Positions 116 through 18,496 of a DNA stretch of 26,347 bases are shown piece after piece (within the stretch, counting starts at the first letter, position 1; every line of letters begins with the position of its first letter). The stretch covers positions 1 through 26,347 of the IMG/VR virus record IMGVR_UViG_3300017963_000688; one strand, 5' to 3'. Origin of the DNA: a virus. The notes under the pieces are model-generated. The model did not search any database and was not told the DNA's origin. It saw nothing but the letters and a program-made list of their open reading frames with translations. Position numbers and translations under genes: made by a program.

Positions 116-505
116 ATGAGAGATTTTAGAGGACTAAGAACAGACGGCAAGGGGTGGGCCAATGGCTATCTTATAGCCGACAATTGGATAAGTGAGTGCG
201 AGATTGACTTTTCATGCTACCCTGAGTACATACAGGATGATTGCCTTGAGGTTGGCCCCGAAACAGTCGGCCAATACACTGGCCTCAAGGACAAGAATGG
301 TGTTGAGATATATGAGGGGGATGTGGTGAAAGGATTTGGGAACAGAATGATTGTTTTCTATAACGATATGCGTGCGATGTTCGCACTGGATTACATTACA
401 GATTACCAAGGAATGAATACACCTTCAAGGCAAATCTCGCCTAATGATGATTGGGATGAATACGAAGTCATCGGCAACATACACCAGAGTCCAGAGCTAC
501 TATAG
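116..505 (+). CDS. YopX-like phage protein
   Basis: A 129-residue protein with the hallmarks of the YopX family: N-terminal FRGLRTDGKGW and GYLI, the central block ETVGQYTGLKDKNG then EIYEGDVV, and a C-terminal EVIGNIHQSPELL. YopX proteins are common in phage early and accessory regions; their biochemical role is unknown. The start is set by AAGGAG eight bases upstream of the ATG. It sits between the helicase-like end and a DUF551-like gene and is probably co-transcribed with both. The family assignment is strong, but no function can be given. Confidence 0.9.
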   Translation: MRDFRGLRTDGKGWANGYLIADNWISECEIDFSCYPEYIQDDCLEVGPETVGQYTGLKDKNGVEIYEGDVVKGFGNRMIVFYNDMRAMFALDYITDYQGMNTPSRQISPNDDWDEYEVIGNIHQSPELL

Positions 506-537
506 CACTAACATTAAGTGATAGAAAGGAGAAAGAT

Positions 538-807
538 ATGGCTAAGAAAAACATAGGATTAAACACAAGTATTCAGGTGTTGCAAAGCAGGGTCGCAGAG
601 CTTGAGGCTGAACTCAAGAAGCACGACTGGATTAGCGTTGAGGATAGGCTGCCGAGAAAGGATAGCAGGTGGCTGCAATACCTTGTCTTGACAAATGAAA
701 TGGCAGACGCATGTTCTTATAGGGAGTTTGATGAGGGTTGGCAATGGGACAGCGACCGAGGCGAAGTCACTCACTGGAAACCAATTAATTCGCCGGAGAT
801 TAAATAA
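538..807 (+). CDS. DUF551-like protein with short coiled coil
   Basis: An 89-residue protein. Residues 12-28 form a short heptad-type helix (VLQSRVAELEAELKK). The rest carries the DUF551 signature: WISVEDRLP near the start of the domain, a central strand (YLVLTN), and VTHWKPI near the end. DUF551 proteins are frequent in phages and prophages and have no known function. The GAAAGGAG upstream fixes the ATG. The stop overlaps the next start as TAATG, which implies coupled translation with the HNH gene. Confidence 0.85.
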   Translation: MAKKNIGLNTSIQVLQSRVAELEAELKKHDWISVEDRLPRKDSRWLQYLVLTNEMADACSYREFDEGWQWDSDRGEVTHWKPINSPEIK

Positions 808-1247
808 TGGCTAAGAAAAAGTTCAAAGCAAAGCCCATGAAGGTTTGGCTCGATTCCCTTGCCCGTCTCTTGGTCAAGACCAGGGACGAGTGGTGCTGTC
901 AGTATGAACACTGTAAGGGGCCAGTTGGGGTCATGGAGTGGCATCACATAAGGTACAGGACCCTGAACCACCTAAGATGGGAGTTAGACAATGGCATCAC
1001 CTTATGTTCAAGCTGTCACAGGGAATGGCATAATGGAGCTAAGTTGCAGAAGTGGTTCTGTGAGACGTTCCCAGAGAGGTATGAGTTTATCTATTCTAAG
1101 CCCAAGCCTCTAGGGACGTGGAAGGAACAGGACTTCCTTGATGTGCAGGATAAGCTAGTAAGATTATGTATTGACTATGAGGTAGACCCTAGTAGGCTGT
1201 CTCATTCACAAGGTAAAAGGTTGGCTAAATTAATGGAGAAGATATGA
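807..1247 (+). CDS. HNH nuclease
   Basis: A 146-residue protein with an HNH (beta-beta-alpha metal) nuclease core. A zinc site is suggested by C31/C36 and C67/C70. The catalytic signature is E44-W-H46-H47, then N62 in ELDNGITLC, then H71 and H75 in CHREWHN. HNH enzymes cut DNA with one bound metal ion. In phages they act as homing enzymes, packaging nicking partners, junction-processing enzymes or restriction nucleases. The basic N-terminus (MAKKKFKAKPMK) fits DNA binding. The gene overlaps the following methyltransferase by four bases (ATGA), so the two are translated together. Whether they form a functional pair is inference; the position away from the terminase argues against a packaging role. 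Confidence 0.85.
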   Translation: MAKKKFKAKPMKVWLDSLARLLVKTRDEWCCQYEHCKGPVGVMEWHHIRYRTLNHLRWELDNGITLCSSCHREWHNGAKLQKWFCETFPERYEFIYSKPKPLGTWKEQDFLDVQDKLVRLCIDYEVDPSRLSHSQGKRLAKLMEKI

Positions 1248-1906
1248 GATTAATACATGGCGATTGCCTAGAAGCAATGAAACTAATACCAGAGGATGCC
1301 ATTGTAGTAAGCGACCCACCTTTCAACGTGAAATACCATTACAATACATGCCGTGACAATATGAAAGAGTCTGTTTATTACGACATGCTTTCTACGGTCA
1401 TCGGTGGACGCAAGGCAGTTATTGTGCATTACGGAGAGCAGTTGCATAAATTGAGCATTAAGCTTGGGTATGCTCCAGACAAAATTGTATCTTGGGTTTA
1501 CAATTCAAACACAGCTAAGCAGCACAGGCAAATTGCTTTCTACGGCGTCAAGCCAAACTTCAAGCAAGTCGGCCAACCTTACAAGAATCCAACAGATAAA
1601 CGAATAGCACAAAGAATCAAAGAAGGTAAGATGGCCAAGCTGTATGACTGGTGGAGCGTAAATCAAGTAAAGAATGTATCCAAGGAAAAAACAGAACATC
1701 CTTGTCAAATGCCGTTGAAAGTCATGGAAAACATAGTAGGCATACTTCCTGTCGGTGCAACAATCCTTGACCCATTCATGGGTTCAGGCACAACGGGCGT
1801 GGCATGTGTCAATTTAAAGCGTGACTTCATCGGGATTGAAATGGACGACAAGTATTTTGAAATAGCAAGTAAACGAATTGAAGATGCGAAAGGATTATTC
1901 CAATGA
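1244..1906 (+). CDS. DNA (adenine-N6 or cytosine-N4) methyltransferase, beta class
   Basis: A 220-residue S-adenosylmethionine-dependent DNA methyltransferase. The catalytic motif IV, S23-D-P-P-F27-N, comes near the N-terminus (after HGDCLEAMK). The cofactor motif I, D176-PF-M-G-S-G-T-T, comes near the C-terminus, followed by GIEMDDKYFEIASKRI. This order is that of the beta class, as in RsrI- and DpnA-like enzymes; a DPPF catalytic site methylates an exocyclic amino group of A or C. The middle (about 60-150) is the likely target-recognition part and is short. Phage enzymes of this type usually protect phage DNA from host restriction. The four-base overlap with the HNH gene before it and the next gene after it indicates one operon. 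Confidence 0.93.
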   Translation: MRLIHGDCLEAMKLIPEDAIVVSDPPFNVKYHYNTCRDNMKESVYYDMLSTVIGGRKAVIVHYGEQLHKLSIKLGYAPDKIVSWVYNSNTAKQHRQIAFYGVKPNFKQVGQPYKNPTDKRIAQRIKEGKMAKLYDWWSVNQVKNVSKEKTEHPCQMPLKVMENIVGILPVGATILDPFMGSGTTGVACVNLKRDFIGIEMDDKYFEIASKRIEDAKGLFQ

Positions 1907-7359: not shown

Positions 7360-10300
7360 CTATTGTTCCTTTTGCCATTTACGAACTGCCAGTGAGAAGG
7401 CTTCTGCTGCGTTTGCGTTGTATTGTGTTTCCAGGTTAATCAATTCCCTTTGTGTTTCTTTAGAGAACTTGTTCAAGAAATCACCTACGTCACGTTTAGC
7501 AACCAAGCCTAACGGCGAAGCATTGTCTAATGCAGACCTTATGCCAGACTCAATGCTAGCAAGCTCTTCTGCGTCATCACCTGCCCTATTTAAGAGGAAG
7601 AATAGGTGTTTGCTTGCATCTTTGGTGTCGCCGACAAGTATCTGCCTGATTGCCATTTCGTAAGAAAGCGTACGCTCTGTAGGAACTTTCTTTGTCCAAC
7701 CAAGGATAGCCTGTGAAGCCTTCTGCTTGGCCTTATCTGTGGCATTAGGGTTTTTCTTGTCATAAGCATACTCAAAGCCTTTTGTTCTGGCTATTGAATA
7801 TTCCTGAGTTATGTTCTTCTCATTGAACTTGGCATCTACTTTGTCAAATAAAGCCATTGCTTGTTTAAGTGCGGCAGACTCTTTCTGTGCTAATTGGACA
7901 ATTGCATCTTTGGTTTGACTTGGATTCCATGTAGATTTCACTACTGCATCGCCAACATTTTTAGCTGTCTGAAGTGTAGGCCCACCAAAAAGATTTGGCA
8001 ATCCGTAGACTATGTCAGCCAGAATACCAACTGCGCCTCCGTCCAATATATCTTTAATGATATTAGATGAGATGGCCTTGAGGTTTCGATTCTCTTCTTT
8101 AGTGAGGTTCTTTGTTAGTGACTCGCTTTTTCCTAAAGTAAAGTCTCGTGCAACGTTGTATATCTCACCGACAATAGCCATTGAAACTAGCCATCTTACC
8201 ATTTTAGATGGGTCACGATTCTGTACGGAATCTTTGATTACGTCATTCCATACATGACCAACTTGGTCTGCACCCCATGTCTTAAATTGAGCCGAGATTC
8301 GCATGAATGGCTTATTGTCCCACCAGCTACGCTTAGTACTTAACATAACAGGGAAGGCCGTGTCTTTGACTGTTCGGTGAAGGATTGCATCTAACAGCTC
8401 TGGAGGGATGTCGTCAGCCGAAGTCAGCTTGCTTATTAATTCGTCATTTCCAAGCTCACGTAATCTATTTTTAGCTTGCCTCGGAGACTGTCCAATAGTT
8501 TCAAGAACAGATATGATTCCGCCGATTCTCTTGTCAAGAACCTTTGATATTTCGCTGTTGCTATTAAGAAGTTTCAAGTCTCTGTCGATTGAGTTCTTCT
8601 TCATCTGAGCAAGGAACACTTGGTTGCCTCTTTCAGATTTAGAGAATATCTTGCCTGCAACTTTAGTCAAGAGATGGCCAGGCTGGTATCCTTCACCAAG
8701 AGATGTATTGGAAAAGATGGCACCACGGCGTATCATTTCCTCTTCTACTTCTCTTGAATGCTTAATCCATGCACTTATAATTGGTGGGAACTCTTTTAAC
8801 GTCTTAAACAAAGTGCTAGTTGGTCCCATTGCAATTGCTTTTGGGGCTCTGTCAAGCATATTCTTTGTTATCGTCAAAGGAGATAGTCCAATCTTAGATA
8901 GGAACTGATAACCTCTAACTGCTCCGCTAATCTCCTGGCTTGCCGCAGATGCCTGTGAACCTCTTCCAAAAGAAGCTTTAATGAAAGTATCTAGTGTATT
9001 AGCTTCGTCTGCATTTGTTACTCCACGCAAAGACTCACTTTTGACGGCAAGCTTAGGGAATGGCTGGCCTTTTACGTCAGCGCCCCACTGTCTTATGCCT
9101 TCAATAGAGAGCCAGTTCTTCTGAATAAGACCTTCAAGGACTCTGTCAGGGTCCCATTCTATAAATCTATCTGGCAATGGAACTCTAGTCCGTTCAAGGT
9201 AGCCAGAAACTCCACGTAATTGATCTTGCCTGAACCTCTGCAAGTCTGCTACATATTCTTCTACTGAATTAGCAGTACCATTCTTGACGGCTTCTTGGGC
9301 GACCTCGATCACTTCAGGGGAGTTCATGCCTTTATTGGCAGCTTGCTTGAGTATCTTTTCGCCAAGTGCATTAGGAACTTGCGGGAATGCCTCGCCAGTC
9401 TTAGTCAATGAAACTTTCTTACCGCCTACTGTACGCTTAATGCCGACCTTATTTGCTTCATCGAGCATTACGTCTAGCGCTTTACGTAGTTTATCACCAC
9501 GCTCTTTTATCCATTTAGGAGGGTTAGCTTCACGTCCATTGATATACTTGGCAATACGTTCACGGTTAGCCTTATTGACACCTTTAAGTATCTTCTCTGT
9601 ATCCAAAGCAGTGTTATTTATCTGCTTCTGTGCCCTCTGGCCTACCTCATTTAAGTCCTTGGAGATAGATTTACCTTCAGGGCCAAGAGATTCAAGGTGC
9701 TTGGTATATCGACGTATATTGCGACTTGCAACTTCCTTAGTCGCACCCTTAATATCAGACAAAGTAGAACCTAAACGTGTAGCTGTTTCTGTTACTTCTG
9801 TTACAATATCAGGTATGATTGTAGTGGCACCTGCCTGTTTGCCTCCAGCTAGGGCTGGTTCTTGACTAGGCACCTTAGTTAGCGGCGGCTCCTGTGGCTT
9901 GATATGAGGCGTTTTAACCTTAATAGGCTCTACGGGAGGTGTGGCTGGAGATTTCGCCTTCACGGACGTCACAGGGGCCTTAACGGGCTCTGTGACAGAA
10001 GCAGGCCGAAACTTAGGCTTGATAGTGACTGGCTGGCCACGGAATATTATATCTTTTGCCTTCCCATCCTTTAGTAAATCACGAGCCTTTATGACTGCTT
10101 CAAACTCATCTCTCATTCCTTTTACTTTGTCTGGGTGATACTTGAAAGCCTCTTTTTGTGCGGCCTTGCGAATCTGTTCTGGAGTAGCACCCTTTTTGAG
10201 CTTGAGGAGTTTAAGGGCCCTTAATTTTTCTGTTGGGGTTAGTTTAGACCATACACCTTTAATGCCAGAGCCTAGGTATGAGAATACCGCACCAACAGCC

Positions 10301-11136
10301 ATATCCCTAAGCACTGCCTTTGGGCCTTCAAAGCCATATTCAGTGTCTGTTGGATTAATAACCGTACTAGCAGCCTTTGTTATTTGGGCAATAGCTGCGT
10401 TGATCCCATATATCTTCCCTGCTTCAGCGGCTTTAATAGTGGCAGTGATTCCTTTTGGGGTTCCACCTACGAGCTTAGTTTTAATACCTAGTGCATTAGC
10501 GGACTGTATTCCACCAGCAAACTCTGCGATTTCGCCTATAGCTTTACTAAATCCAGATGGGTCGTACCCCATGGCCCAATCAACTGCCTCAGTCAAAGTC
10601 ATATCCTTAGCTTCTTCTGCTATCATACCTTCTGGCATCACTCTTTTGATGGCAGCGTAAGCAACATCTCCTATGTGAAACATTTTGCCATTTGCATATT
10701 TGAAGAATGTGCGTATCGGTGTTTGACCAAGAAGCTTTATCCCTGCGTCTACTTTCTCTATCCTACTTGGGTTTGGAGGTAAGTCCATTCCGTCACCAAC
10801 AAAGAAATTCTTTATTCCAACTTTAGATAGGAACTTTGGAGGAGTGGTGAACTCAGATGTGGGCTGTGATGGTGGGCTTAATGGCTGGTTAAGGTTCTCG
10901 TATCCACGCTCTGCTTCGGACAAGGGTATGCCTAGGTCAAGGTGCATCTTCCATATGTCTTCAGCTGCGGTTGTAACCTCTTCTTTGTCTGTGTTGCCAG
11001 CAAAAACATTGGGGCCAGCAGCTCTTGCGTTAAGGTCGTCCAGTTCAACTTGCTCATCTTGAGTCAACGATGTGGACACACCTGCTCTGCTGTTAAGTGA
11101 GTCAAGTTCAGATTGTTCTTGTACCGTTAATGGCAT
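7360..11136 (-). CDS. Large internal virion (ejection) protein with DnaJ domain, gp16 position
   Basis: A 1258-residue protein in the gp16 position, between a gp15-like protein and the fibre. Residues 3-40 hold two copies of LTxxEQxELDxLNxRA. Residues about 190-290 are hydrophobic/Ala-Gly rich. Residues about 305-358 form a J domain (KKGATPEQIRKAA, YHPDK with H334-P-D336, then DEFEAVIKARDLLKDGK). Residues 365-440 are a Pro/Lys/Thr linker. The rest is long and helical, with a C-terminal part like large polyvalent phage proteins. No lytic transglycosylase motif was seen. In T7 the gp16 homologue is ejected and spans the cell envelope; here the J domain suggests contact with host DnaK. Start and stop are tightly coupled (TAATG before, TAG-ATG after). 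Confidence 0.85.
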   Translation of the reverse strand: MPLTVQEQSELDSLNSRAGVSTSLTQDEQVELDDLNARAAGPNVFAGNTDKEEVTTAAEDIWKMHLDLGIPLSEAERGYENLNQPLSPPSQPTSEFTTPPKFLSKVGIKNFFVGDGMDLPPNPSRIEKVDAGIKLLGQTPIRTFFKYANGKMFHIGDVAYAAIKRVMPEGMIAEEAKDMTLTEAVDWAMGYDPSGFSKAIGEIAEFAGGIQSANALGIKTKLVGGTPKGITATIKAAEAGKIYGINAAIAQITKAASTVINPTDTEYGFEGPKAVLRDMAVGAVFSYLGSGIKGVWSKLTPTEKLRALKLLKLKKGATPEQIRKAAQKEAFKYHPDKVKGMRDEFEAVIKARDLLKDGKAKDIIFRGQPVTIKPKFRPASVTEPVKAPVTSVKAKSPATPPVEPIKVKTPHIKPQEPPLTKVPSQEPALAGGKQAGATTIIPDIVTEVTETATRLGSTLSDIKGATKEVASRNIRRYTKHLESLGPEGKSISKDLNEVGQRAQKQINNTALDTEKILKGVNKANRERIAKYINGREANPPKWIKERGDKLRKALDVMLDEANKVGIKRTVGGKKVSLTKTGEAFPQVPNALGEKILKQAANKGMNSPEVIEVAQEAVKNGTANSVEEYVADLQRFRQDQLRGVSGYLERTRVPLPDRFIEWDPDRVLEGLIQKNWLSIEGIRQWGADVKGQPFPKLAVKSESLRGVTNADEANTLDTFIKASFGRGSQASAASQEISGAVRGYQFLSKIGLSPLTITKNMLDRAPKAIAMGPTSTLFKTLKEFPPIISAWIKHSREVEEEMIRRGAIFSNTSLGEGYQPGHLLTKVAGKIFSKSERGNQVFLAQMKKNSIDRDLKLLNSNSEISKVLDKRIGGIISVLETIGQSPRQAKNRLRELGNDELISKLTSADDIPPELLDAILHRTVKDTAFPVMLSTKRSWWDNKPFMRISAQFKTWGADQVGHVWNDVIKDSVQNRDPSKMVRWLVSMAIVGEIYNVARDFTLGKSESLTKNLTKEENRNLKAISSNIIKDILDGGAVGILADIVYGLPNLFGGPTLQTAKNVGDAVVKSTWNPSQTKDAIVQLAQKESAALKQAMALFDKVDAKFNEKNITQEYSIARTKGFEYAYDKKNPNATDKAKQKASQAILGWTKKVPTERTLSYEMAIRQILVGDTKDASKHLFFLLNRAGDDAEELASIESGIRSALDNASPLGLVAKRDVGDFLNKFSKETQRELINLETQYNANAAEAFSLAVRKWQKEQ

Positions 11137-13081: not shown

Positions 13082-13266
13082 TAAAATATCCCCCCTGGCA
13101 TCTTATTAAGGAACGAAGAGTATCCTTCTTTCCTGGCTTCCTTTTTTGTTTTGCCAGTAAGAGTTGCTTCAATACCCTCAATAGAGTCCGCCTCCTTAGG
13201 AAGAACACCGATGCTCCTTGAAGCAGAGGTGGCACGTCCAACCGAGTCATTCAACACTTGTCCCAT
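13081..13266 (-). CDS. Small hypothetical virion-region protein
   Basis: A 61-residue basic protein (MGQVLNDSVGRATSASRSIG through FLNKMPGGIF) with no recognised domain. It is bracketed by TAATG overlaps on both sides, so it is translated with the gp13-like and gp14-like genes. A small peptide at this place is common in related gene orders and may be a minor virion component. Confidence 0.7.
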   Translation of the reverse strand: MGQVLNDSVGRATSASRSIGVLPKEADSIEGIEATLTGKTKKEARKEGYSSFLNKMPGGIF

Positions 13267-13676
13267 TACATATACCTCGCATACATAAACGCATCTTTGT
13301 CGCCAACGAAATTCTTCATTGTGCTTTCCTTTGTAAAACCAAGATGTTCAACTAATCTTATTGCTTCAGGAAAGTCACACTCTACGTAAGCCTGAAGCCT
13401 GCTTATATTGTTGTTTTCGCAGAAGTTATTTATACTATCACGGATTACACGGAAAGCAATCAACCGCTTGTCTTTGGCTAATTGGGTCATATCAACCCAG
13501 CACCATGCCGTATGGAGATTAATAAACCTAAACCCACCAACGCCCATGACCTGGCCATCGTCCTCCAGTGTGTATAAATAACTAATCTGTCCTGGGCATT
13601 CCTTCTGCATTCCACGGCTTGTGGAGTTGTCGCCCATATAGTCCAAATCTTCTTGTATACTCTCTCTAAATATCAT
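13266..13676 (-). CDS. GNAT-fold protein, T7 gp13-like
   Basis: A 136-residue protein with an acetyltransferase-like pattern: N-terminal MIFRESIQEDLDYM, a VMGVGGFRFIN strand, an AFRVIRDSINNFCENN helix, and the C-terminal pair EAIRLVEHLGF and STMKNFVGDKDAFMYAR. It resembles the phage gp13-type GNAT family found just before the internal virion proteins; the T7 protein is needed for proper assembly of the core. The pyrophosphate-binding Q/RxxGxG/A loop is not clear, so enzymatic activity is doubtful. The gene overlaps the nozzle body by ATGA. Confidence 0.82.
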   Translation of the reverse strand: MIFRESIQEDLDYMGDNSTSRGMQKECPGQISYLYTLEDDGQVMGVGGFRFINLHTAWCWVDMTQLAKDKRLIAFRVIRDSINNFCENNNISRLQAYVECDFPEAIRLVEHLGFTKESTMKNFVGDKDAFMYARYM

Positions 13677-15772
13677 CGTCCAGTTTTGCTCACTCTTGAT
13701 AAAATAGCTCTTACTGTTAATGGGGTTGGATTAGTAACCCCAGACGTTTTCTTGCTCGTTACTATCATTGGGTCGTCAATAGTGAATCCTGCGTCCTGAT
13801 GAACAGTTACGTCACCAGTGAATAGGTCGTCTATTTCAGACTTATTAATCAGTTCAGCCGATGTGAGGTCAACATCGTATGTATCGCTTTCACTATCACC
13901 ATAAGACACATCCTTTGAATCAAGGACGCTGAGGACGGCTTCTGCGGCTTTCTTTGTGCTACCATGTGTTGAACCACCTCCTGTGTCTGTATCAAGTCTC
14001 ATGGGCTTTACAATAGGCGTAAACGGCAAGCCTACGTGTACTACAGAGGCGGCATCGTCCAGCGTAATCTCACCGCCAGATACCGTCTTTGGACCCACAG
14101 AGATACCGTCAGCCAATACAGCCACAGTCTCACCTTCAAGATAGTCAAGGCCTGTAATAGTTGTGGTAGCCACATCGTCATAAATATAGCCAGCATCGAC
14201 AAAATGTGCGTCATCATCATCTGTGAATCTCCTTGGAGTAAACCTCTCAATTACCACTACTTCTTCGCTATTCAAGGTACGGTTCACTGATAGCCATACC
14301 TCGTCTTCGTTTGTACTTGGTATTACACAGCCTGAATTAACGCTACCGTTTGTTGGGTGATTGGAGTAAGCTATTACATTCTGGTCCTTTTGGTAGGTCA
14401 GGGAATGAAGTGTGCCATCTGCCATACCAAACCATAGGATTGATTCTGGGTGCTCTTGGTGTGCAAGCCATGTTACGGTAGAGGTTGCTGTGAAATGCTC
14501 TGCTAGCAAGGTTAGTTCTGGGGTAGTATATTTCTGTTCATTGGCATTGTATGTGTACTCCATTAACTTCTTGCCAACAACGTCAATGAAGACAATAGCG
14601 TTGTTTATCTTAATACCTTGTACATCAGCACAACCATACCCTGACTGCTCGTCTACTGTGAAGTTTGTTGGAGTAATAGGGGTGCCAATGCGGTTTGTCT
14701 GTATTGACCATGGCTTACCTGATGTGCCAATGGCTACAGTCTTGTCTACTGTGTCAACCCAGCGTATCTCATTACCAGAGCTTATCGAAACTGCAAAGGA
14801 ATTGTCATCGTTCACTCCTGCATCAAAGTTCTCATAGTCACCAGTCCTGCTTAACCACACGTCCCGCCTAGCCCCGTATATGGCCCTGTCAGAGAGAAAC
14901 GTGATAGACTTAGGGTATCCCTGCACATCACTCCATGAGCCTTCAGCCCAGCGTAAGATAGCTTGCCCAGATGATTTACTGCCAAGATAGGATAGGACTG
15001 TGACTTGCACTGAGGTTGAGCTATTGTAAGAGTCAACCCTTACTATGCCTATCGTCAGGCTGGTATTGTTGGTGAGGTCTGCACTAAAGCCAGATGACAT
15101 GCCTGCTTGCGGTGCTATTCTATATGTTACGTTACTTGAATTCTCTGTGGCTGTGAACTGTATATTCCTATCGTTCTTTGAAACAAACGACCTGAATACC
15201 TCCCAGTCATTACCAGCTACTTTCCTCTGTAGCTCTACGGTTCCAGTCCATGTCCCATGGGTATTAAACGTAAAATTGCCTTTAATATTTAACGCAGAGC
15301 TTGTAGATGTGCCAGTGGTAGATGTCTTAGAGTCTCCACTTGACATTGGGTAGGTGAGTTCAAATAAAGCCCCTACATGGCCAGTCTCAAATGTAGCAGA
15401 GCTAGCCACTAATTGACCAGTCCCACCAACTGTCTCTGTTCCTGTATAAGTCATAGTAACGTCATCGTCATTAGCAAGGTCGTTCCTGAGTAGGAATGGG
15501 CCTTTCTCAAAGACGACTTTATCAAGAGAGAATGTGGTTGGGCTTGTTCTGGATAGTTTGTATTGGGGGTAATCTACGTGAGTAATCCACATTACATCAC
15601 CTAGTTGCTCAAATTGTAGCTGAGGCAGGTCAGAGATGCTATACGGAGTTGCTATTGGGGCGCCGTCGCCGTCTAATAGGGCTCCGTCAAAGAAGAAGCT
15701 GGCGTATTCATGGCCAAACTCAATAGTATAGGCTATTGTGGCTGAGTATATAAATGGAACCATTCTTGTCAT
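13673..15772 (-). CDS. Tail tubular B / nozzle-like protein, body (lacks N-terminal cap)
   Basis: A 699-residue protein that begins inside the family sequence. Its first line (MVPFIYSATIAYTIEFGHEY) corresponds to the 'RLIPFxFSxxQAYVLEFGxxY' block that normally follows the GEVSPxxDARxDxxKYxxGCRRLENM cap. Further family landmarks are IATPYSISDLPQLQF, the DVMWITHVDYPQYKLSR block, FLSDRAIYGARRDVWLSRTGDYENF, and late beta-rich repeats. Relatives are often annotated as FCCH-domain or stabilisation proteins and are thought to form the tail nozzle. The start is real: TAAGGAAACAATATG gives its own ribosome site nine bases after the GLUG gene. The missing cap is supplied, if at all, by one of the two ORFs upstream. 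Confidence 0.85.
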   Translation of the reverse strand: MTRMVPFIYSATIAYTIEFGHEYASFFFDGALLDGDGAPIATPYSISDLPQLQFEQLGDVMWITHVDYPQYKLSRTSPTTFSLDKVVFEKGPFLLRNDLANDDDVTMTYTGTETVGGTGQLVASSATFETGHVGALFELTYPMSSGDSKTSTTGTSTSSALNIKGNFTFNTHGTWTGTVELQRKVAGNDWEVFRSFVSKNDRNIQFTATENSSNVTYRIAPQAGMSSGFSADLTNNTSLTIGIVRVDSYNSSTSVQVTVLSYLGSKSSGQAILRWAEGSWSDVQGYPKSITFLSDRAIYGARRDVWLSRTGDYENFDAGVNDDNSFAVSISSGNEIRWVDTVDKTVAIGTSGKPWSIQTNRIGTPITPTNFTVDEQSGYGCADVQGIKINNAIVFIDVVGKKLMEYTYNANEQKYTTPELTLLAEHFTATSTVTWLAHQEHPESILWFGMADGTLHSLTYQKDQNVIAYSNHPTNGSVNSGCVIPSTNEDEVWLSVNRTLNSEEVVVIERFTPRRFTDDDDAHFVDAGYIYDDVATTTITGLDYLEGETVAVLADGISVGPKTVSGGEITLDDAASVVHVGLPFTPIVKPMRLDTDTGGGSTHGSTKKAAEAVLSVLDSKDVSYGDSESDTYDVDLTSAELINKSEIDDLFTGDVTVHQDAGFTIDDPMIVTSKKTSGVTNPTPLTVRAILSRVSKTGR

Positions 15773-15781
15773 ATTGTTTCC

Positions 15782-16954
15782 TTATACAGCTTGACATATC
15801 TGTTTAAAATCTGCGTTCTCTTGCCACTTTAATCTTGGGTAATCGTTTCCCTCATCTATCATCCATATAGTACTAAAATCCCATCCCGAATAAGTTGCTT
15901 GTTGTTGCATTGAAGATGTTGTTGATTTTGCTATACCTGCTACGTCGCCGTCTGTACCGACATCATTAAGTGGTGCTGGTGGAGTTGCTATTAAGTCGCC
16001 ATCCCAGTATATGCCAGTATGGGTCAGTGTTCCACCATCAGAGTTATTTCCTATAAACCCTCCAATCTCACCTGGTATCCCAGAATCTTCAATTCCGCTT
16101 ATAATTACAGATGAATAACAATTAGTTATAGAATTGTTTGTACCGCCTTTTAAACCTATTAAACCACCAACCCTAGTTAATGAATCTGTTCCAGATGTAT
16201 TTATAATCGAACCTGTGGCATAACAATTAGCAATGTCGCCACCAGAAAAATAACATAACCCGCCTGCTGAAAAAAAGTTACGGCTAGACGTATTTATTAC
16301 ATTAGCTGAACATATACTCATATTAGCATTAGTTGTGTGAATCAGCCCACCAGACTGATTGTTTTGGCTTCCACTAATAGAACCTTGAACGTGCACGTTT
16401 GTAATGGCAGTTGCCCCAAAATCGTTTGAGGTTAGTAAAGCACATGCCGAACCTGCATTAGTTATTGCCATATTTGATAAGGTTAAATTTTCTATTGTAG
16501 CACTGTTTACAGACCTAAAAAAGCTAACAGTTCCATTAGAAGCGTCCATTGAAATATTGCTTATTGTGAAGTAGTTACCGTCAAAAGAGCCAATAAACGG
16601 TAATCCTGGCGTACATAATGGCACAAAACCAGAGCCAGTGGCGTCAAGATTATTCATTAGTTCATAATCGCCACTTCTCAGATGAGTACCCTCAACACCG
16701 ATTTTCATTAAATCCGACATTGTATATATCTGAATCTTAGTTGGGTCAGGCGTAGGCCCTTCATAGTAGCAAGCCGCCCCGTTCCCTACCACAATCATCT
16801 CAGTGCCTGGCCTCTTCTCTACGCTGCCATATTTACGAGGTATCATGTTCTCTAGCCTGCGACAGCCAGAGGCGTACTTTTCTGTGTCAGTGCGTGTGTC
16901 TATTTTGGGGCTGAACTCACCGCCTGAGAATGTTACTGTGTTTATATTAGTCAT
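15782..16954 (-). CDS. Nozzle N-terminal cap fused to GLUG-type beta-helix domain
   Basis: A 390-residue fusion. Residues 1-55 repeat the nozzle cap (GGEFSPKIDTRTD, EKYASGCRRLENMIP, KRPGTEMI). Residues 56-70 are a linker (YYEGPTPDP). Residues 71-378 look like GLUG-repeat bacterial surface proteins: 'YELMNNLDATGSG', 'FIGSFDGNYFTISNISM', repeated GGLI/GGFIG and ITNCYSS/IANCYATGS turns, and the typical closing block SGWDFSTIWMIDEGNDYPRL. This is a right-handed beta-helix fold that may bind host surface glycans or proteins. The DNA is AT-richer than its neighbours (about 37% GC over 16081-16440 by hand count). The start at 16954 is chosen over 16969 because GAGGATGG precedes it and it mirrors the MTNIN start of the other cap copy. 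Confidence 0.82.
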   Translation of the reverse strand: MTNINTVTFSGGEFSPKIDTRTDTEKYASGCRRLENMIPRKYGSVEKRPGTEMIVVGNGAACYYEGPTPDPTKIQIYTMSDLMKIGVEGTHLRSGDYELMNNLDATGSGFVPLCTPGLPFIGSFDGNYFTISNISMDASNGTVSFFRSVNSATIENLTLSNMAITNAGSACALLTSNDFGATAITNVHVQGSISGSQNNQSGGLIHTTNANMSICSANVINTSSRNFFSAGGLCYFSGGDIANCYATGSIINTSGTDSLTRVGGLIGLKGGTNNSITNCYSSVIISGIEDSGIPGEIGGFIGNNSDGGTLTHTGIYWDGDLIATPPAPLNDVGTDGDVAGIAKSTTSSMQQQATYSGWDFSTIWMIDEGNDYPRLKWQENADFKQICQAV

Positions 16955-17141
16955 ATGTTCCATCCTCATTGCTGACCGCTATCTTAGTAGTCCCAGGCCT
17001 CTTAGTGGCATTACCATAGACATCCGGTATCATGTTCTCCAAGCGTCTGCAACCACCAGTGTATTTCTCAATGTCCTTTCGGGCATCTATTTCTGGCGTT
17101 ACTTCACCTGAATTGAAATTGACTACATTTATATTGGTCAT
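16947..17141 (-). CDS. Free nozzle N-terminal cap peptide (duplicate copy)
   Basis: A 64-residue ORF, MTNINVVNFNSGEVTPEIDA through the GCRRLENMIP block to KRPGTTKIAV, ending DGTYD and TAA. It aligns end to end with residues 1-55 of the GLUG fusion (28 of 43 identical by hand over the core) and with the cap of intact family members. It stops just where those proteins continue into the body. The next gene's ATG lies inside its last codons (ATGACTAA), so the two are translationally coupled. It could be a functional cap that associates with the body in trans, or the residue of a duplication. Conservation of all the diagnostic cap residues argues against simple decay. Confidence 0.75.
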   Translation of the reverse strand: MTNINVVNFNSGEVTPEIDARKDIEKYTGGCRRLENMIPDVYGNATKRPGTTKIAVSNEDGTYD

Positions 17142-17560
17142 ACTCTGCCTACCGATTCATTGATAACAGTTACGGGTGGTGGGTCGGATTCATCATATAC
17201 GTTTGTTACTGTCTGGTTTGAATTATATACTATACCGAGGTCAATCTCTTTACCATCTTGCCAGAACAACTCACCCTGTGCTAATGGGTAGTCGGTTACG
17301 GCTGGTGAACCACCTGTCTGTAGGAATATCTCAATACGATAAGTCTCTACGTCAGTTCCAGTGATGGCAGATGGGAAGTCTGCTGAGTAATAGTCACCAC
17401 CATTGTCTGTCATTGGAATATCATACGTCAATATGTTGGCGTCATTCCAGACTTCAAATGTATCAGTGCCTACTATATTCACAGCGTCATCCTGTTTCCT
17501 TCTAATGACGGCGTATAAAGTAAAGCCTGACTTATAAGTATTGTATATTTCATTAGCCAA
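17138..17560 (-). CDS. Structural-region protein of unknown function (TTG start)
   Basis: A 140-residue beta-rich protein: MANEIYNTYKSGFTLYAVIR, then DTFEVWNDANILTYDIPMTD, GGDYYSADFP and TYRIEIFLQTGGSP. The pattern resembles small Ig-like structural proteins encoded between the adaptor and nozzle genes. The frame opens with TTG at 17560; no ATG lies nearby in frame, and AGGAAAG sits about ten bases upstream, so TTG is the likely start. It overlaps the preceding gene by eight bases and the cap peptide gene by ATGA. Confidence 0.7.
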   Translation of the reverse strand: MANEIYNTYKSGFTLYAVIRRKQDDAVNIVGTDTFEVWNDANILTYDIPMTDNGGDYYSADFPSAITGTDVETYRIEIFLQTGGSPAVTDYPLAQGELFWQDGKEIDLGIVYNSNQTVTNVYDESDPPPVTVINESVGRV

Positions 17561-17750
17561 GGGTAGTTTTCTTTCCTGTTGACTTTGGTGCTAGGTTTCC
17601 GGTAAGGAATGTCTTCGATAGACCTGACCTTTTGCGTTCTTCTTTTACTGCAAATTCTTCTGCCTCGCTCTGTACGGTTGGTACGGGAGGTGGCTCTGGT
17701 ACTGGTGGTGCTTCAATTGGGTCTGGTGTTCCGCCAAATACGCTTCCCAT
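17553..17750 (-). CDS. Small proline-rich structural-region protein
   Basis: A 65-residue protein: MGSVFGG, a Pro-rich stretch (PPVPEPPPVPT), a charged helix (EEFAVKEERKRSGL) and TFLTGNLAP ending KKTTLG. Small proteins with a Pro-rich N-terminus, a basic helix and a 'T-I/F-L-T-G ... K-T-x-L-G' end are usual between portal/adaptor and tail genes of such phages. Role unknown. AAGGAGACGATAATG gives both the ribosome site and the overlap with the gp11-like stop. Confidence 0.8.
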   Translation of the reverse strand: MGSVFGGTPDPIEAPPVPEPPPVPTVQSEAEEFAVKEERKRSGLSKTFLTGNLAPKSTGKKTTLG

Positions 17751-18496
17751 TATCGTCTCCTTGATATATTGTGAGTAAATCGTGCATCATTCCATGTTAG
17801 TTTGGCTAAGTTGCCCTTGCCTTCTTGTCTACTTATTGTTCTTGCTCTACTAGAGAGTCTGGCGTATTCACCAAGAAGCATATTCCTTAACGACTGTGCC
17901 CCTGAGTCAATACCAGATAAGGGATTGAGCAGTGCGAGTGCGAGTTGATTTATGAACATCTCTGTGAACAGTGAATCCCACTCTGTAGTATCTGCGACTT
18001 GTTTGATATAAACTATATCAAGTTCAGTCTCAGTTGATAATATATTATTGCTTTCAAGTGCCCAGTCCTGCTTGGAGTCTGTTGCACTGTTTATGTCTAT
18101 TACTGCATAGAGCCTAAGTGAGTCTGCTGGCAGGTCATATTCTGCTCCATATACATCTGTTGCAGAAGCTGACACCTCCACCCACTTGCCAGCTCCAAGG
18201 TCTGTATCAAAGTCGTCTGAGGTATGAGCTATTGCACATTTATACTGAACAGAGTCCTCATATACATACTGGTCTGTGGTATATACAGTCTCAGTCTTCC
18301 ATCCAGATGATAACCTAAGCGGTACACGGGCGAACTGCCAGTTGAAACTTCTTGTTAGCGAATCTCTTACTTGGGCAAAATGCAGGTTGGCCTGTTCGCC
18401 TTGGACTGTTGTTTGCAAGGCTTCTGTCATTTGCTTTGCGCCAATCCTAGCTAGTGACTGGTTTGCTAATGCAACTTCTTCTGTTGTTAATGCCAT
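17750..18496 (-). CDS. Tail tubular protein A (gp11-like adaptor) with CBM-like insert
   Basis: A 248-residue protein with the adaptor signature: ALTTEEVALANQSLARIGA, FAQVRDSLTRSFNWQFAR, DLPADSLRLYAV, and C-terminal FTEMFINQLALALLNPLSG. Gp11-type proteins form the ring between portal and nozzle. Residues about 65-108 interrupt the usual order with a segment (YEDSVQYKCAIAHTSDDF, then KWVEV) like family 5/12 carbohydrate-binding modules, which also appear in other phage tail proteins. It is the first gene after a strong terminator. GAGG lies nine bases before the ATG. Confidence 0.87.
   Translation of the reverse strand: MALTTEEVALANQSLARIGAKQMTEALQTTVQGEQANLHFAQVRDSLTRSFNWQFARVPLRLSSGWKTETVYTTDQYVYEDSVQYKCAIAHTSDDFDTDLGAGKWVEVSASATDVYGAEYDLPADSLRLYAVIDINSATDSKQDWALESNNILSTETELDIVYIKQVADTTEWDSLFTEMFINQLALALLNPLSGIDSGAQSLRNMLLGEYARLSSRARTISRQEGKGNLAKLTWNDARFTHNISRRR

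What the first reader, a model, noticed from the sequence alone, without database searches (positions are those of the whole stretch)
13673..17141. Nozzle (tail tubular B) gene split into body and two alternative N-terminal caps
The conserved cap (SGE-x-x-P-x-ID-x-R ... GCRRLENMIP ... KRPGT) occurs twice upstream of a 699-residue body that begins exactly where the cap should end. One cap is a free 64-residue peptide; the other is fused to a large extra domain. Each ORF has its own start and the three are translationally coupled. This could let the phage build a ring from two kinds of cap plus a common body, setting how many subunits carry the extra domain. I know of single-polypeptide relatives only; that the split is functional is inference.
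Basis: partly seen in the sequence, partly recalled or inferred. Interest (0 to 1): 0.8.

Follow-up and report, generated by a model that had tools for sequence, protein, structure and literature searches.

The report
Split phage nozzle with two caps
In an uncultivated short-tailed virus of bacteria, the gene for the tail-tip ("nozzle") protein is broken into a main body and two separate copies of its 60-residue N-terminal cap, one bare and one carrying a large extra domain; related uncultivated viruses share the arrangement, so it is real and old, and it suggests a way to hang receptor-type domains on chosen subunits of the nozzle ring.

Summary
Confirmed. On the minus strand a free 64-aa cap (16947-17141), a cap fused to a GLUG-like domain (start probably 16954; stop at 15782) and a cap-less 699-aa body (13673-15772) together make up one nozzle (tail tubular B, PHROG 376, Carin1 8ck1/T7 gp12 fold). 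The break falls exactly where the cap ends in intact relatives. It is not an assembly or nonsense artefact: at least four other IMG/VR contigs have two cap ORFs plus a separate body (three with cap-GLUG), with junctions in other frames or another gene between. One has a 64-aa free cap aligning without gaps to the window's (44/64) with the same tail. About ten more are split at this junction. 129 of 145 distinct nozzles sampled are intact there, including the nearest relative by capsid. Both caps evolve under purifying selection. In T7 gp12 the corresponding piece supplies three strands to the C-terminal platform barrel, so complementation in trans is structurally sensible (inference). That bare and loaded caps share one ring, setting how many subunits carry the domain, is plausible but untested: one relative has two loaded caps, another two nearly bare ones.

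The parts
16947..17141 (-). cap1: free 64-residue nozzle cap (MTNINVVNFNSGEVTPEIDAR...GGCRRLENMIPDVYGNATKRPGTTKIAVSNEDGTYD)
   Evidence: PHROG 376 pos 7-58, E 4.9e-13; cap HMM E 5e-26; same-length orthologue in L220, 44/64 identical
15782..16954 (-). cap2-GLUG: second cap fused to a large GLUG-like domain, 390 aa from the probable start (ATG 16954); ORF listed from ATG 16969 as 395 aa
   Evidence: PHROG 376 pos 6-56, E 4.7e-15; orthologues L098 (two copies) and L213
16772..16954 (-). cap portion of cap2 (about 61 residues, ...GCRRLENMIPRKYGSVEKRPGTEMIVVGNGAA)
   Evidence: 61% identical to cap1
15824..16740 (-). GLUG-like beta-rich extra domain (approximate limits)
   Evidence: Peptidase_M26_N (GLUG region) E 4e-4, below cut-off; phmmer to 6xja/6xjb IgA1 protease E 5e-7; phrog_30905 E 6e-11
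15785..15808 (-). C-terminal tail of cap2-GLUG ending CQAV, conserved in L098 (CQSV, CQAV)
   Evidence: alignment A8
13673..15772 (-). nozzle body, 699 aa, cap-less, starts MTRMVPF at the position where intact relatives continue after the cap
   Evidence: PHROG 376 pos 66-710, E 1.7e-147; 8ck1_A phmmer E 1.5e-63; 60% id to the separate body of L098
15779..15784 (-). stop codon of cap2-GLUG (TAA, 15782-15784) overlapping the Shine-Dalgarno-like AAGGA of the body
   Evidence: sequence
16947..16954 (-). 8-nt overlap cap1 stop / cap2 start (ATGACTAA); L098 has the same 8-nt overlap (GTGTCTAA)
17138..17560 (-). upstream 140-aa ORF (TTG start) whose stop overlaps the cap1 start (ATGA); similar ORFs precede the cap in L098, L213, L180, L220 and L018
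   Evidence: similarity judged by eye
17750..18496 (-). adaptor (tail tubular A), phrog_394
   Evidence: E 1e-28
13266..13676 (-). acetyltransferase-like gene directly after the nozzle, as in pelagiphages and epsilon15

Best explanation
This is a genuinely split nozzle. The cap is the N-terminal part of the nozzle's platform, the surface that docks on the adaptor ring. It is made as its own small chain and joins the body by non-covalent strand complementation instead of by a peptide bond. Two cap paralogues share the cap sites of the nozzle ring: one bare, one carrying a GLUG-like domain at its C-terminus, where the chain would otherwise run into the propeller. The domain would then stand at the platform/propeller edge near the fibre-docking region as a receptor-binding or decorating module, on only some subunits if both caps assemble. 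Shown: the split, its exact place, its recurrence, purifying selection on both caps, the fold of body and cap (predicted). Inferred: assembly in trans (about 0.8), GLUG as an adhesive module (about 0.6), bare and loaded caps mixed in one ring (about 0.45).
For: Exact split against PHROG 376 and against relatives in an alignment. Same layout in independent contigs with diverged sequence: L098 (body 60% id), L220 (59%), L213 (54%), L180 (49%), each with two cap ORFs and a separate body. Cap-body junctions differ in frame and sequence (4-nt overlap in L098 and L180, 4-nt gap in L213, a whole gene between in L220), so the break itself is what is kept. The free 64-aa cap in L220 aligns without gaps to cap1 with the same tail. 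Non-synonymous change is far below synonymous for cap1-cap2 (pN 0.28, pS 0.88) and cap1-L098a (0.25, 0.84). WIN+L098+L220 and WIN+L098+L220+L213 are starred clades, all two-cap. AlphaFold model of cap2-GLUG-body read through: body about 90 pLDDT, cap residues 31-60 about 76-90; it superposes on Carin1 nozzle 8ck1_A from model residue 1 to 1093, chain 7 to 829, Z 37.2, 637 residues, 2.5 A. In T7 gp12 the first 45 residues give three strands to the C-terminal platform barrel (PMC6702177). Parallel case: in L187 and L194 the C-terminal platform piece is split off and present twice, once bare (about 190 aa) and once loaded (about 560-610 aa).
Against: No proteomics, no virion, no complex prediction. 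Not all relatives have a bare plus a loaded cap: L098 has two loaded caps, L220 two almost bare caps, and several have one free cap, so a mixed ring is not the common denominator. Two caps per body would give twice as many caps as body sites if all were made equally. The nearest relative by capsid (L018, MCP 85%) has an intact nozzle, so the split is not required. The GLUG model is poor (pLDDT 42 alone, under 60 in the long model), so its fold and position are not shown. The adhesive role is by analogy only.
Confidence: 0.6

Rival explanations
1. Domain-acquisition by-product: the cap/propeller loop tolerates insertions, an extra domain entered there with its own stop and start, the cap stayed able to complement in trans, and duplication followed without any selected effect on ring stoichiometry. 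Each ring would carry whichever cap binds.
For: Breaks occur at several loops (cap/body; body HMM about 268-286; about 447-488; about 511-517), with unrelated loads: GLUG, Ig/FN3-like, tail-fibre-like, kelch-like, most of the smaller hits weak. Single free caps without duplication are common (L100, L135, L136, L165, L181, L195, L225).
Against: Two caps kept across WIN, L098, L220, L213 and L180, and across L180/L143 as two orthologous pairs, with purifying selection on both; bare plus loaded pairs arose at another break too (L187, L194).
Confidence: 0.25
2. The two caps do separate jobs: one completes the nozzle body, the other anchors the GLUG protein (or acts as an assembly factor) at another site such as the adaptor, so there is no competition for one site.
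For: L180a/L143a and L180b/L143b pair as orthologues, i.e. the copies keep separate identities there; L220 has two nearly bare caps, which would be redundant if they were equivalent.
Against: Both caps keep the same core motif, which in intact proteins serves the nozzle's own platform; in L098 and L220 the copies look partly homogenised.
Confidence: 0.13
3. Alternative product by stop read-through: in the window cap2-GLUG and body share a frame with one TAA between them, so a minor 1,093-residue fusion could be made.
For: Same frame, single TAA; the read-through chain gives a good nozzle model.
Against: Good SD and ATG right at the junction; in L098, L213, L180, L166 and L220 the two are in different frames, so read-through is not a conserved feature.
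Confidence: 0.05
4. Assembly or sequencing error, or a decaying gene.
For: The window is a single 26-kb metagenome contig; some other loci (L006, L039, L183) look like simple frameshift breaks.
Against: Independent contigs repeat the layout at about 40-50% protein divergence; pN much lower than pS; free-cap length and tail kept in L220.
Confidence: 0.02

Closest known systems
Single-polypeptide nozzle / tail tubular protein B (PHROG 376; Carin1 gp36, PDB 8ck1; epsilon15 gp12; pelagiphage tail tubular B; T7 gp12 fold)
   Same: Homologous cap and body; same gene order (adaptor, nozzle, acetyltransferase, internal virion proteins); same overall fold in superposition
   Different: There the cap is the N-terminus of one chain and occurs once; here cap and body are separate ORFs and the cap is duplicated, one copy carrying a GLUG-like domain
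SPP1 tail tube proteins gp17.1 / gp17.1* (3:1, FN3 added by frameshift; PMC7666168)
   Same: Works alike if the reading is right: one structural subunit in a bare and a domain-bearing form in the same assembly
   Different: SPP1 makes the two forms from one gene by translational frameshift on the whole subunit; here two genes encode alternative caps of a shared body. No homology claimed
T7 gp10A/gp10B capsid protein (own knowledge, not checked here)
   Same: Minor form with an extra domain at sub-stoichiometric ratio
   Different: Frameshift product, capsid protein, no split
GLUG-motif proteins (IgA1 protease N-terminal region, PDB 6xja)
   Same: Sequence similarity of the extra domain
   Different: Here it is carried by a phage tail cap; no protease domain

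Membership tests
Nozzle / tail tubular protein B, PHROG 376 | Propeller/platform body homologous to PHROG 376 over nearly full length | tested here: met
   Body 2-697 to profile 66-710, E 1.7e-147; 8ck1_A phmmer E 1.5e-63
Nozzle / tail tubular protein B, PHROG 376 | N-terminal cap motif present (F-x-x-G ... P ... R-x-D ... N ... G ... R-x-G) | tested here: met
   Present twice, as separate ORFs
Nozzle / tail tubular protein B, PHROG 376 | Position between adaptor and acetyltransferase/internal virion genes | tested here: met
Nozzle / tail tubular protein B, PHROG 376 | Fold: propeller plus platform as in 8ck1/T7 gp12 | tested here: met
   Z 37.2 to 8ck1_A, Z about 25 to T7 gp12 structures, for the predicted read-through chain
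Nozzle / tail tubular protein B, PHROG 376 | Hexamer under the adaptor ring in virions | not testable with these tools
   No virion available
Intact (single-polypeptide) form of that family | Cap and body in one ORF | tested here: not met
   Separate ORFs here; one ORF in 129 of 145 distinct nozzles sampled
SPP1-type bare/loaded subunits by translational frameshift | Two forms from one gene by recoding | tested here: not met
   Two separate cap ORFs with own starts; it may still work like it
GLUG domain (PF07581 / PF05342) | Score above Pfam's curated cut-off | tested here: inconclusive
   Window domain 20 bits against a cut-off of 27.7; loads of L180 and L225 pass the GLUG cut-off

The most novel reading that the evidence does not exclude
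A clade of podoviruses has turned the nozzle into a kit of strand-complementing pieces (cap, propeller halves, C-terminal platform), several present as bare and domain-loaded paralogues, so that a ring is built from mixed subunits with a controlled number of receptor-binding modules; the window's cap1/cap2-GLUG/body is one such kit.
Probability: 0.4. Interest if true: 0.9.

Novelty: new variant of a known kind. Interest (0 to 1): 0.72.

Why it matters
Solved nozzles are single-chain, six-fold uniform rings. A nozzle assembled from separate cap and body chains, with alternative caps, would show how a phage can put a receptor-type domain on a subset of otherwise identical subunits without recoding, would break the assumed six-fold symmetry, and gives natural cut points for displaying domains on phage tails. 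It also means that gene callers and family-based annotation can miss free 60-75-aa caps and mislabel cap-less bodies as complete.

Tried and rejected
Read-through or nonsense mutation: considered because cap2-GLUG and body share a frame; set aside because other members differ in frame. Assembly error: set aside by independent contigs. Single-protein search with cap2-GLUG in IMG/VR found nothing and the wide nozzle alignment had no stretch conserved enough to scan with; cap pairs and close body sets worked instead. The genome scan gave only one relative, intact, in an alphaproteobacterial MAG (L163). Isolated phages: no record with a second cap match (78 places in 78 records, 44 in 44), and the records opened were intact. 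AlphaFold of cap2-GLUG alone was poor (pLDDT 42), so no fold is claimed for GLUG; in the long model the GLUG columns had no aligned relatives. Pfam on other loads mostly gave nothing or weak hits. Literature searches found no split nozzle, but only open-licence papers are held. L006, L039 and L183 were left out as probable frameshift errors.

Full report
OBSERVATION. On the minus strand the window carries, in order of translation, cap1 (16947-17141, 64 aa), cap2-GLUG (stop at 15782; the listed ATG is 16969, the likely one 16954, giving 390 aa) and a 699-aa body (13673-15772). Both caps hit PHROG 376 only at positions 6-58 of 712 (E 4.9e-13 and 4.7e-15); the body hits 66-710 (E 1.7e-147). The caps are 61% identical. 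Chance is not an option (cap HMM E 5e-26 and 5e-25). The body begins MTRMVPF, exactly where intact proteins continue (for example ...NHGVVSRMVPFIYSSS in L018; alignment).

WHAT IT IS. The body is a nozzle: 8ck1_A (Carin1 tail nozzle) by sequence at E 1.5e-63, and relatives in pelagiphages, epsilon15 and BcepC6B sit at the same place, after the adaptor. The chain cap2-GLUG-body, predicted with its TAA read through purely as a modelling device, has a body at about 90 pLDDT and cap residues 31-60 at about 76-90, while GLUG is not reliable. It superposes on 8ck1_A from the first cap residue to the last body residue (Z 37.2, 637 residues, 2.5 A), and on T7 gp12 structures at Z about 25. In T7 gp12, three strands of the C-terminal platform barrel come from the first 45 residues, and the platform contacts the adaptor (PMC6702177). 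A free cap can therefore be read as a strand-complementing piece of the platform; this step is inference.

IS IT REAL? A survey of relatives fetched from IMG/VR and GenBank phages gave 145 distinct nozzles, 129 with cap and body in one ORF, 14 split at the junction and 2 undecided (loci with incomplete bodies are not in this count, and the sample was drawn partly by cap searches, so the share of split ones is not a frequency). The nearest relative by capsid protein, L018 (85%), is intact. But L098 has cap-GLUG, cap-GLUG and a separate 60%-identical body; L213 and L180 have a cap ORF, a small ORF, a cap-GLUG ORF and a separate body; L220 has a 64-aa cap, a cap of about 73 aa, a pectate-lyase-like spike gene and a separate body. 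L100, L135, L136, L165, L166, L181, L195, L225, L232 and L236 are also split at this junction, most with other domains on the body's N-terminus. The junctions differ in frame and sequence, so the break, not a particular stop codon, is conserved. The 8-nt cap1/cap2 overlap recurs in L098.

SELECTION. Between cap1 and cap2 pN is 0.28 and pS 0.88; between cap1 and its counterpart in L098 0.25 and 0.84. Cap1 and the free cap of L220 share 44 of 64 residues without gaps, including most of the terminal tail, with codon-position differences 12, 13 and 36. A free cap that ends at the same residue in two diverged phages is not a truncated relic. L180 and L143 share two orthologous cap pairs, so duplicates are kept; the caps of L098, L213 and L220 resemble their own partners, which suggests gene conversion or repeated duplication.

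PHYLOGENY. In a tree of the middle of the body, split nozzles are clustered (5 changes against 12.2 in shuffles, 2 forced by starred branches), inside a group of 22 rows with 94% SH-aLRT. WIN, L098 and L220 are one clade (99*) and L213 joins them (100*); all have two caps. The tree is a quick one with some long rows.

OTHER BREAKS. The same group is also cut at body HMM about 267-286 (L020, L102, L103, L136, L165, L186, L195, L225, L228, L236), where GLUG or other domains often start the second half, and near the propeller/C-terminal platform boundary (L171, L175, L187, L194, L235). In L187 and L194 the C-terminal platform piece occurs twice, once bare and once with an extra domain of about 400 residues. 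That is the mirror image of the window's bare and loaded caps, and the best independent support for the idea that bare/loaded pairs are useful.

MECHANISM. Shown: separate coding, exact site, recurrence, constraint, predicted fold. Inferred: caps join the body in trans; the GLUG-like domain sits at the platform/propeller edge near the fibre-docking side; the two caps share the ring. Against a single purpose of tuning the count: L098 carries two loaded caps, L220 two nearly bare ones, and many relatives have a single free cap. A neutral or domain-acquisition account remains the main rival.

KNOWN THINGS. The protein family is known; the split form was not found in the isolates or in the open papers searched. 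The closest functional analogue is SPP1 gp17.1/gp17.1* at 3:1, made by frameshift (PMC7666168). Verdict: new variant of a known kind, real, recurrent, and testable.

Noticed in passing
L187:9467-11649 and L194:9295-11612: The C-terminal platform piece of the nozzle is a separate ORF present twice, once bare (188/192 aa) and once carrying an extra domain of about 400 residues (weak kelch hit in L187).
   Followed up: partly
L020:6030-9732, L102:5989-9688, L103:5989-9700, L186:7001-10765: Nozzles split inside the propeller (body HMM about 267-286) into two overlapping or adjacent ORFs; in L020, L102 and L103 the second begins with a GLUG domain.
   Followed up: partly
window 7360-11136 (-): The 1258-aa putative internal virion protein contains a DnaJ J-domain (residues 309-361, E 1.2e-7).
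   Followed up: no
L143:6947-8361, L180:6953-8600, L213:7180-7318, L236:6300-6600: Cap tails contain repeats of a short motif like VxCYENEVVxYEN; similar YED/WED motifs occur in loops of nozzles and upstream ORFs of L100, L104, L166, L187, L020. Meaning unknown.
   Followed up: no
L019:4929-6394: In this close relative (MCP 69%) the ORFs downstream of the adaptor gene read like glycosyltransferases where the nozzle would be expected; the contig ends there.
   Followed up: no
L220:5392-6969: A pectate-lyase-like spike gene lies between the two caps and the nozzle body.
   Followed up: partly
L171:9489-11249 and L175:9888-11654: C-terminal nozzle ORFs with very long Ser-rich low-complexity stretches before the platform piece.
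   Followed up: no
window 116-1906 (+): Left end, other strand: YopX-like, HNH endonuclease and N6/N4 DNA methylase genes.
   Followed up: no
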